The notes under the pieces: generated by a model
Seen by the model: only the letters and a program-made list of their open reading frames with translations
The model's database searches: none
Told to the model about the DNA's origin: nothing
Translations under genes and position numbers: made by a program
Assembly: GCF_012489685.1 (NCBI RefSeq)
Contig: NC_080046.1
Location: 35,303,176-35,367,175, forward strand
Reading direction: 5' to 3'
Length of the DNA: 64,000 bases
Source: Lotus japonicus
Taxonomy: Eukaryota; Streptophyta; Magnoliopsida; Fabales; Fabaceae
Shown here: piece after piece, positions 51,144 through 53,054 of the stretch
Layout of the letters: each line of letters begins with the position of its first letter
Numbering within the stretch: the stretch's first letter is position 1

Positions 51144-53054
51144 ATGGCTGCCACCACCAGTGAAACTCAAAGAGATGGTTACAACGCAAAGCCTCCTATG
51201 TTCGATGGTCAAAGGTTCGAATATTGGAAAGATAGACTGGAAAGTTTCTTTCTGGGTTTCGATGCAGATCTCTGGGATATTATTGTGGATGGCTATGAGC
51301 GTCCAGTTGATGCAGATGGCAAAAAGATCCCAAGGTCAGAGATGTCTGCAGATCAAAAGAAGCTGTACTCACAACATCATAAAGCAAGAGCAATTCTTCT
51401 AAGTGCTATCTCCTATGAGGAGTACCAGAAGATTACAGATCGTGAGTTTGCTAAAGGCATTTTTGATTCTCTGAAGATGTCTCATGAAGGAAACAAGAAA
51501 GTCAAAGAATCAAAGGCATTGTCTTTGATCCAAAAGTATGAATCCTTCATCATGGAGCCAAATGAGTCCATTGAAGAAATGTTCTCCAGATTTCAACTGC
51601 TTGTAGCTGGCATACGTCCTCTCAACAAGAGCTACACAACAAAAGATCACGTCATAAGGGTCATCAGGTGTCTTCCTGAAAGTTGGATGCCTTTGGTGAC
51701 TTCAATAGAGCTCACGAGAGATGTTGAGAATATGAGTTTAGAAGAACTCATCAGCATTTTGAAATGCCATGAGCTGAAGCGCTCAGAGATGCAAGATCTG
51801 AGGAAAAAGTCCATAGCCTTGAAATCCAAATCTGAAAAGGCTAAGGTTGAGAAGTCAAAGGCTCTTCAAGCTGAAGAAGAAGAATCTGAAGAAGCATCAG
51901 AAGATTCTGATGAAGATGAGCTGACTCTGATCTCCAAGAGACTCAACCGCATCTGGAAGCACAGGCAGAGCAAGTTCAAAGGCTCTGGAAAGGCAAGAGG
52001 AAAGTCTGAATCCTCAGGTCAGAAGAAGTCATCAATCAAGGAAGTCACTTGCTTTGAGTGCAAAGAATCAGGGCACTACAAAAGTGACTGTCCAAAATTG
52101 AAGAAGGACAAGAAGCCAAAGAAGCACTTCAAGACCAAGAAGAGTCTGATGGTGACATTCGATGAATCAGAGTCAGAGGATGTTGACTCTGATGGTGAAG
52201 TCCAAGGACTCATGGCTATTGTCAAAGACAAAGGAACAGAGTCAAAGGAAGCTGTTGACTCTGACTCAGAATCAGAAGGAGATCCAGACTCTGACGATGA
52301 AAATGAGGTATTTGCTTCCTTCTCTACCTCTGAACTGAAACATGCTTTGTCTGATATCATGGATAAGTATAACTCCTTGTTGTCTAAGCATAAGAAGCTG
52401 AAAAAGAACTTATCTGCTGTTTCTAAAACTCCTTCTGAACATGAGAAAATCATATCTGATTTGAAAAATGATAACCATGCTTTAGTTAATTCTAACTCTG
52501 TGCTTAAGAATCAAATTGCAAAGTTAGAAGAAGTTATTGCCTGCGATGCCTCTGATAGTAAGCATGAATCTAAGTATGAAAAATCTTTTCAAAGATTCCT
52601 GGCTAAAAGCGTAGATAGAAGCTTAATGGCTTCAATGATCTATGGTGTAAGCAGAAATGGAATGCATGGCATTGGCTATTCTAAACCAATTAGAAATGAG
52701 CCTTCTGTGTCTAAAGCTAAATCCTTGTATGAATGCTTTGTTCCCTCTGGTACCATATTGCCTGATCCTGTACCTGCTGAAGTTGCTAAAAACCCTCTTA
52801 AAAAGGGATCTTTCTCTATGACTAAATATCATGCAAATATTCCTTTAAAATATCATGTTGAGACACCCAAGGTGATCAGAACCTTTGGGGTAACTAACAA
52901 AAGAGGACCCAGAAAGTGGGTACCTAAGGACAAGATTATCTATGTTGCAGATATCCTTGATAGCTCCACTGAAACACCAATCATGGTATCTGGACAGTGG
53001 ATGCTCGCGTCACATGACGGGAGAAAAGCGTATGTTCCGAGAGCTGAAACTTAA
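51144..53054 (+). CDS. E3 Gag (636 aa), full-length unspliced form
   Basis: ATG at 51144 after a 72-nt leader. Residues about 12-250 form the copia Gag core (PPMFDGQRFEYWKDRLESFF, FSRFQLL-type motifs). The zinc knuckle is C303, C306, H311, C316 (CFECKESGHYKSDC), followed by a Lys-rich tract. Then come an acidic D/S/E region and a coiled coil, about 399-465 (LKHALSDIMDKYNSLLSKHK, LKNDNHALVNSNSVLKNQ). The C-terminal 250 residues are encoded by the candidate intron plus 34 codons that overlap protease in another frame. It is conserved with E1, so the long form is probably a real product. It should assemble the virus-like particle in the cytoplasm. Confidence 0.88.
   Translation: MAATTSETQRDGYNAKPPMFDGQRFEYWKDRLESFFLGFDADLWDIIVDGYERPVDADGKKIPRSEMSADQKKLYSQHHKARAILLSAISYEEYQKITDREFAKGIFDSLKMSHEGNKKVKESKALSLIQKYESFIMEPNESIEEMFSRFQLLVAGIRPLNKSYTTKDHVIRVIRCLPESWMPLVTSIELTRDVENMSLEELISILKCHELKRSEMQDLRKKSIALKSKSEKAKVEKSKALQAEEEESEEASEDSDEDELTLISKRLNRIWKHRQSKFKGSGKARGKSESSGQKKSSIKEVTCFECKESGHYKSDCPKLKKDKKPKKHFKTKKSLMVTFDESESEDVDSDGEVQGLMAIVKDKGTESKEAVDSDSESEGDPDSDDENEVFASFSTSELKHALSDIMDKYNSLLSKHKKLKKNLSAVSKTPSEHEKIISDLKNDNHALVNSNSVLKNQIAKLEEVIACDASDSKHESKYEKSFQRFLAKSVDRSLMASMIYGVSRNGMHGIGYSKPIRNEPSVSKAKSLYECFVPSGTILPDPVPAEVAKNPLKKGSFSMTKYHANIPLKYHVETPKVIRTFGVTNKRGPRKWVPKDKIIYVADILDSSTETPIMVSGQWMLASHDGRKAYVPRAET
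52308..52950 (+). other. Candidate exitron (643-nt GT-AG intron in gag), E3
   Basis: Begins GAG|GTATTTGC and ends TTATCTATGTTGCAG|ATATCC. It is open in the gag frame throughout. Pol, in the +1 frame, is closed by TAA at 52891-52893, so pol can be reached either by frameshifting in 52894-53054 or by removing this segment, which joins Gag codon 388 (GAG) to ATA of pol in frame. E2 lacks exactly this segment; E1 has it at the same length. Confidence 0.65.

What the first reader, a model, noticed from the sequence alone, without database searches (positions are those of the whole stretch)
52308..52950. An exitron-like intron inside gag that would switch between Gag and Gag-Pol
In E3 and E1, gag and pol are in different frames. 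A segment with GT...AG ends (GAG|GTATTTGC ... TGTTGCAG|ATATCC) is exactly 643 nt in both (52308-52950; 28119-28761 minus strand) and keeps an open gag frame. 643 is 3n+1, so removing it puts pol in frame with gag codon 388. Unspliced RNA would give the 636-aa Gag, spliced RNA a Gag-Pol with a shorter Gag. This would set the Gag:Pol ratio by splicing rather than by stop readthrough or ribosomal frameshift. A partly spliced intron before pro-pol is known in Ogre Ty3 elements; I do not know of this arrangement in sireviruses.
Basis: partly seen in the sequence, partly recalled or inferred. Interest (0 to 1): 0.93.

Follow-up and report, generated by a model that had tools for sequence, protein, structure and literature searches.

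The report
Retrotransposon intron switches Gag to Gag-Pol
A plant jumping element carries, inside its shell-protein gene, a protein-coding stretch with intron ends that a sister copy lacks at exactly those ends; cutting it out of the RNA would put shell protein and enzymes in one frame, a likely switch between the two products.

Summary
In detail: 52308-52950 (E3) and 28119-28761 minus (E1) are 643-nt GT..AG segments, open in gag, whose removal puts pol in frame with gag codon 388. A random deletion here can be read as GT..AG in about 0.5% of cases. Natural Gag-protease fusions with the same junction occur in other families. A second family in the same genome, about 64% identical in gag, keeps AG|GT in 29 of 30 loci, CTAAC in 29, acceptor AG in 28, and a 634-nt (also 3n+1) segment in 26. 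The segment is constrained as protein (E1/E3 dN/dS 0.10-0.11). I conclude that it is most likely a protein-coding intron that toggles Gag and Gag-Pol, which would explain how sireviruses with pol in +1 express Pol, an acknowledged puzzle. No RNA was available, E2 is a low-quality contig, and genome-wide searches for further spliced copies did not complete.

The parts
51144..53054 (+). E3 gag ORF, 636 aa, the product of unspliced RNA (gag domain at residues 42-215, zinc knuckle 302-318)
52308..52950 (+). E3 protein-coding intron (exitron), 643 nt, GAG|GT..AG|AT, open in gag; encodes Gag residues 389 to about 602
52894..52898 (+). CTAAC, branch-point-like box (consensus recalled), the only CTRAY in the last 100 nt of the segment; kept in 29 of 30 second-family loci
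52894..53054 (+). overlap in which both the gag and the pol frame are open
52942..55842 (+). E3 pol ORF, +1 frame relative to gag, Pfam integrase and reverse transcriptase domains
52984..53022 (+). protease motif WYLDSGCSRHMTG in the pol frame (motif meaning recalled), 33 nt after the acceptor
37282..40521 (+). E2 natural ORF of 1079 aa; the segment is missing, with the exon-exon-like junction at 37425|37426
28119..28761 (-). E1 copy of the segment, 643 nt, same donor, CTAAC box and acceptor

Best explanation
The 643-nt segment 52308-52950 is most likely a protein-coding intron (exitron) of a Sirevirus-type Ty1/copia element: unspliced RNA would give the 636-aa Gag, and spliced RNA would give a Gag-Pol joined after Gag codon 388. 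Shown: the segment has a canonical donor and acceptor and a CTAAC box; it is constrained as Gag protein; one element in the window and several relatives exist as natural copies lacking exactly this segment. Inferred: those copies arose from spliced RNA (by reverse transcription, for DNA copies). Predicted and untested: spliced RNA is the messenger for Gag-Pol, partial splicing sets the Gag:Pol ratio, and unspliced RNA is both the Gag messenger and the genome that passes the segment on. The spliced product would keep the gag domain and zinc knuckle and lose the long C-terminal Gag extension (residues 389-636).
For: E2 lacks the segment at the exact junction; chance of a GT..AG reading for a random deletion 1236 of 224684, or 281 of 54782 in a restricted set. 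Natural fusions with the same junction: P0045, P0076, P0077, P0103, P0105, P0124, P0102, P0132. Second family: AG|GT 29 of 30, CTAAC 29 of 30, acceptor AG 28 of 30, 634 nt (3n+1) in 26 of 30. T-content change-point in gag at 52309, one base from the donor. dN/dS of 0.10-0.11 in the segment between E1 and E3. E at 388 in 62 and V at 389 in 63 of the 71 homologues with a residue there, of 75 aligned.
Against: No RNA evidence. E2 is a separate contig between 100-N gaps with 18 small deletion events in its 5' part and none just after the junction, and it has one extra A near the junction. Its ends share AG, a 2-nt microhomology. The source of the src proteins is not stated, and several fused proteins from named species are gene models. 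Pol is also reachable by a +1 shift in the 161-nt overlap. The T contrast is absent on the acceptor side (31.1% in the segment, 29.3% in the next 300 nt), and third positions alone peak broadly at about 52290. Genome-wide counts of intron-less copies could not be obtained.
Confidence: 0.72

Rival explanations
1. Incidental splicing: the sites are used now and then and seed intron-less copies, but Pol is made from unspliced RNA by +1 frameshifting, bypass or internal entry, as has been proposed for sireviruses.
For: gag and pol overlap in 52894-53054; bypass or internal entry proposed in print, with a conserved inverted repeat at the boundary (PMC2829016; PMC5009743); a hairpin folds over the protease motif in E3.
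Against: The junction restores the pol frame in both Lotus-type families (643 and 634 nt, both 3n+1). None of the +1-shift motifs tried (Ty1 and Ty3 types, recalled) lies in the gag frame of the overlap; the one string match was in another frame. The hairpin sequence codes for protease in the pol frame, and a change in the second family leaves one of its pairs unpaired (sequences).
Confidence: 0.16
2. Deletion without splicing: E2 and the fused relatives arose by template switching or microhomology deletion that happened to join gag and pol in frame.
For: The two ends share AG; fused frames could be favoured because they join gag to pol.
Against: About 0.5% of deletions can be read as GT..AG, and the same point is used in several diverged families.
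Confidence: 0.06
3. E2's junction is an assembly artefact (misjoined or collapsed low-quality contig end, perhaps with transcript sequence used in gap closing), and the fused proteins are gene-model errors.
For: E2 lies in its own contig between 100-N gaps, and its small-indel density falls to zero after the junction. Fusions from Vicia villosa and Trifolium repens are gene models.
Against: A misjoin has no reason to fall exactly on GT..AG; P0102 and P0132 are listed on contigs of 2331 and 3462 nt and P0045, P0076 and P0077 stand for 2, 10 and 25 member sequences. If transcripts were used, that itself would show splicing.
Confidence: 0.06

Closest known systems
Ogre (Ty3 type) partly spliced intron
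   Same: A subset of transcripts loses an intron so that the whole polyprotein can be read; unspliced RNA gives only the upstream product (PMC6317226, passages).
   Different: Different superfamily. [quoted passage not shown] here the intron is itself constrained Gag coding sequence and lies before protease.
BARE1 and EVADE/copia short-GAG splicing
   Same: Ty1/copia elements using facultative splicing near the gag/protease border to balance Gag and Pol (PMC3735527 and PMC12786077, passages).
   Different: Opposite polarity: there one ORF holds gag and pol and splicing breaks the frame to make Gag only; here the frame is broken until splicing joins it.
Sireviruses with pol in the +1 frame
   Same: pol +1 relative to gag, large gag with a central zinc knuckle, extra ORF after pol (PMC2829016).
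   Different: The printed proposals for Pol expression are bypass or internal entry; none of the listings or passages I saw mentions an intron between gag and pol.
Exitrons (protein-coding introns inside coding exons)
   Same: GT..AG, no stop inside, coding when retained (definition recalled).
   Different: Known from host genes (recalled); the search for exitron with retrotransposon and gag listed no paper.

Membership tests
Sirevirus (SIRE lineage, Ty1/copia) | Copia-type gag domain plus zinc knuckle in a large Gag | tested here: met
   PF14223 and zf-CCHC in a 636-aa Gag
Sirevirus (SIRE lineage, Ty1/copia) | integrase before reverse transcriptase | tested here: met
   rve at pol residues 203-304, RVT_2 at 553-796
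Sirevirus (SIRE lineage, Ty1/copia) | extra ORF between pol and the 3' LTR | tested here: met
   730-aa ORF 57145-59337, no Pfam match; reported for 74% of SIRE elements (PMC6317226)
Sirevirus (SIRE lineage, Ty1/copia) | primer binding site for tRNA-Met | tested here: inconclusive
   TGGTATCAGAGC follows the 5' LTR; the identification as a tRNA-Met site is recalled
Sirevirus (SIRE lineage, Ty1/copia) | place in a reverse transcriptase tree with SIRE elements | not tested
   no tree was built
Spliced gag-pol intron of the Ogre kind | removal joins the frames of the upstream and downstream ORFs | tested here: met
   643 and 634 nt, both 3n+1, acceptor in the pol frame
Spliced gag-pol intron of the Ogre kind | both spliced and unspliced RNA seen | not testable with these tools
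   no transcript data held; E2 and fused relatives are indirect
Exitron | GT..AG segment inside a coding exon, no stop when retained, constrained as protein | tested here: met
BARE/EVADE short-GAG splicing | splicing breaks the gag-pol frame so that the spliced RNA makes Gag only | tested here: not met
   here removal joins the frames

The most novel reading that the evidence does not exclude
A retained protein-coding intron, not ribosomal recoding, is the Gag/Gag-Pol switch of legume sireviruses and possibly of +1 sireviruses in general. The long C-terminal Gag extension is itself the intron, and spliced RNAs are reverse-transcribed often enough to seed intron-less, single-frame Gag-Pol copies, so genomes carry their own record of the splicing.
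Probability: 0.5. Interest if true: 0.9.

Novelty: new variant of a known kind. Interest (0 to 1): 0.8.

Why it matters
How sireviruses, abundant plant retrotransposons, express Pol when it lies in the +1 frame is treated in print as unresolved, with bypass or internal entry as suggestions (PMC5009743, one passage; PMC2829016, section 3). A coding intron answers it with a standard machine and makes it testable by one RT-PCR. It would be a Ty1/copia counterpart of Ogre with the opposite polarity to BARE and EVADE. It also offers a genomic way to detect retroelement splicing: look for intron-less sister copies.

Tried and rejected
Equal length in E1 and E3 as evidence: rejected, because the copies align without gaps. 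Splice-site conservation in the 40 nearest copies: true but weak, because they are 95-100% identical and were picked by similarity. IMG/VR scans with Gag and Pol alignments found no relative. +1-shift motifs in the overlap: none in the gag frame among the few tried. Hairpin at the boundary: folds in E3 but overlaps the protease motif, and one pair is lost in the second family. Non-legume fused gene models (Malania, Cannabis, Phoenix and others) were not counted, because they join gag at other, inconsistent places. Trifolium subterraneum models P0108, P0118 and P0119 were set aside as a different family; Trifolium repens P0134 uses another donor. dN/dS against the second family is saturated at synonymous sites; its segment values (0.28-0.30) are higher than those before the segment (0.05-0.11), which I tell but do not rely on.

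Full report
What was checked. The gag ORF 51144-53054 and the pol ORF 52942-55842 are in different frames, pol being +1. Pol-frame stops run up to 52891, and the protease motif WYLDSGCSRHMTG starts at 52984, so a simple +1 frameshift would have to act between 52894 and about 52984. The segment 52308-52950 starts GT and ends AG, is 643 nt (3n+1), is open in gag, and its removal joins gag codon 388 to the pol frame. E1 carries the same segment with the same ends, but its match to E3 gag starts only at the equivalent of 51545 and it has stops elsewhere.

The key result. Self-comparison of the window and an alignment show that the third element, E2 (36132-46049), matches E3 up to 52307 and again from 52951, with nothing between: GATGAAAAATGAG|ATATCC, against GATGAAAATGAG|GTATTT...TTGCAG|ATATCC in E3. 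Apart from one extra A in the A-run before it, this is exactly the exon-exon junction that the finding predicts. Two bases (AG) are shared at both ends, so the deletion can be placed in three ways, one of which is GT..AG. Among 224684 distinct deletion products of 543-743 nt in gag/pol, 1236 (0.55%) can be read as GT..AG; in a set restricted to plausible ends, 281 of 54782 (0.51%).

Caveat on E2. E2 is its own 11.5-kb contig between 100-N gaps. Against E3 it has 18 small deletion events (17 of one base, one of two) and two insertions between E3 positions 50801 and 52255, then no indel from 52951 to 55811. These look like unpolished sequence (inference). They break E2's gag frame and mean that E2 should be confirmed from raw reads.

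Independent copies. A search with Gag gave 75 homologues (of 7997 candidates scored); those with a named organism are mostly Lotus japonicus, Vicia, pea (Lathyrus oleraceus) and Medicago, plus single Nicotiana, Ulmus and Tanacetum hits. 14 of the 75 end like E3 Gag, in the stretch that overlaps the pol frame. Eight proteins without a species name instead run from the acidic Gag linker straight into protease at the same place: P0045 (..SDSEE|ISLAAKRTESKVSWYLDSGC; 2 member sequences), P0076 (10), P0077 (25), P0103 (1), P0105 (5) and P0124 (1), all labelled src; P0102 (1, ena contig of 2331 nt); P0132 (2, jgi contig of 3462 nt). P0103, P0105 and P0124 start within the linker, so they show the junction but not the rest of Gag. 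Unspliced relatives read ..SDSEE|VFSEL.. (P0016) and ..SENETE|VYSKL.. (P0062, P0063). P0045 is 91% identical to P0016 over their gag parts. These eight may be intron-less DNA or spliced RNA; either would support splicing. Fusions annotated in Vicia villosa (P0104, P0115) and Trifolium repens (P0111, P0130, P0131, P0133, P0135, P0137, P0138) are gene models and count only as hints. In T. repens, pol-only ORFs read MLQ|VCTQ where fused models read DE|VCTQ, which fits a TGCAG acceptor (codons inferred).

Second family in the same genome. The window lies in a 553.7-Mb assembly. Its size, and an NCBI Lotus japonicus protein on a contig of nearly the same length as C6, suggest Lotus japonicus; this is inference. 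A protein search with P0051 scored 113 places of 9044 candidates; the best 30 were fetched. In these 30 loci GT is kept in 30, AG|GT in 29, CTAAC in 29 and the acceptor AG in 28 (27 CAG, 1 AAG; one deleted, one replaced). The segment is 634 nt (3n+1) in 26 (two 635, one 621, one 757). Gag is about 64% identical to E3 both before and inside the segment. In the 40 nearest copies read (10 E3-like, 30 E1-like, window copies included; of 80 listed) the sites are present in 40 of 40, but these copies are 95-100% identical to E3 and were picked by similarity.

Coding and intron-like at once. Between E1 and E3, dN/dS is 0.14 in the 254 gag codons before the segment and 0.11 in 195 segment codons (0.10 for all 214). 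The T fraction of gag changes most sharply at 52309, one base from the donor; 52303-52311 are almost as good. Third positions alone peak broadly around 52290, and 0 of 500 permutations reached the observed value. The segment is 31.1% T against 19.3% in the last 300 nt before it, but 29.3% in the 300 nt after it, so the contrast is on the donor side only. Plant introns are typically richer in U than their exons (PMC3735527, passages). In 71 of 75 aligned homologues with a residue there, E is found at position 388 in 62 and V at 389 in 63; amino acids cannot prove the codons.

How it most likely works. Unspliced RNA: full Gag, and the genome. Spliced RNA: gag domain plus zinc knuckle fused to protease and the rest of Pol. 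The ratio would be set by how often the segment is spliced. The step from 'spliceable' to 'used to make Gag-Pol' is inference.

Known systems. Ogre uses a partly spliced intron to complete its polyprotein (PMC6317226, passages). BARE1 and EVADE splice to make Gag only (PMC3735527, passages; PMC12786077, passages); sunflower and triticale studies report short-GAG splicing as well (PMC7730604 and PMC7765848, passages). For sireviruses, pol in +1 is known, and bypass or internal entry was proposed (PMC2829016, section 3). A 2016 review that describes them ends that section with 'Puzzles awaiting resolution abound' (PMC5009743, one passage). Eight searches for a Sirevirus or copia intron between gag and pol showed, in their listings and the passages I opened, no report of one; the library holds open-licence papers only, and Gao 2003 and Oberlin 2017 were not held.

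Verdict. The splicing interpretation is well supported by genomic copies that look like its products; its regulatory role is untested. It is a new variant of a known kind, of high interest because it makes an old open question directly testable.

Noticed in passing
61929-64000: A tandem array with a period of about 172 bp begins within a base or two of the end of the E3 3' LTR and runs to the window end (self-comparison).
   Followed up: no
15469-20292 and 29513-34323: A 4.8-kb direct repeat, 99.4% identical, holding an E1-type LTR; the second copy abuts the truncated E1 gag. Tandem duplication or assembly effect.
   Followed up: no
10917-11016, 34435-34534, 46050-46149: Three 100-N gaps; E2 fills one whole contig between two of them, and its 3' LTR is cut at the contig end.
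   Followed up: partly
52200-53100: At least 40 places in the genome are 100% identical over these 901 bp (40 of 2177 candidates scored), which suggests very recent amplification.
   Followed up: no
57145-59337: A 730-aa ORF after pol without Pfam match, probably the Sirevirus extra (env-like) ORF.
   Followed up: no
P0133 and P0135 (Trifolium repens gene models): Near-identical models differ by one Q exactly at the junction, as expected if two adjacent acceptors (CAG CAG) exist.
   Followed up: no
52951-54500 against 37426-38975: E2 and E3 show 0 substitutions here but several per 500 nt further 3': recombination, gene conversion or assembly effect.
   Followed up: no
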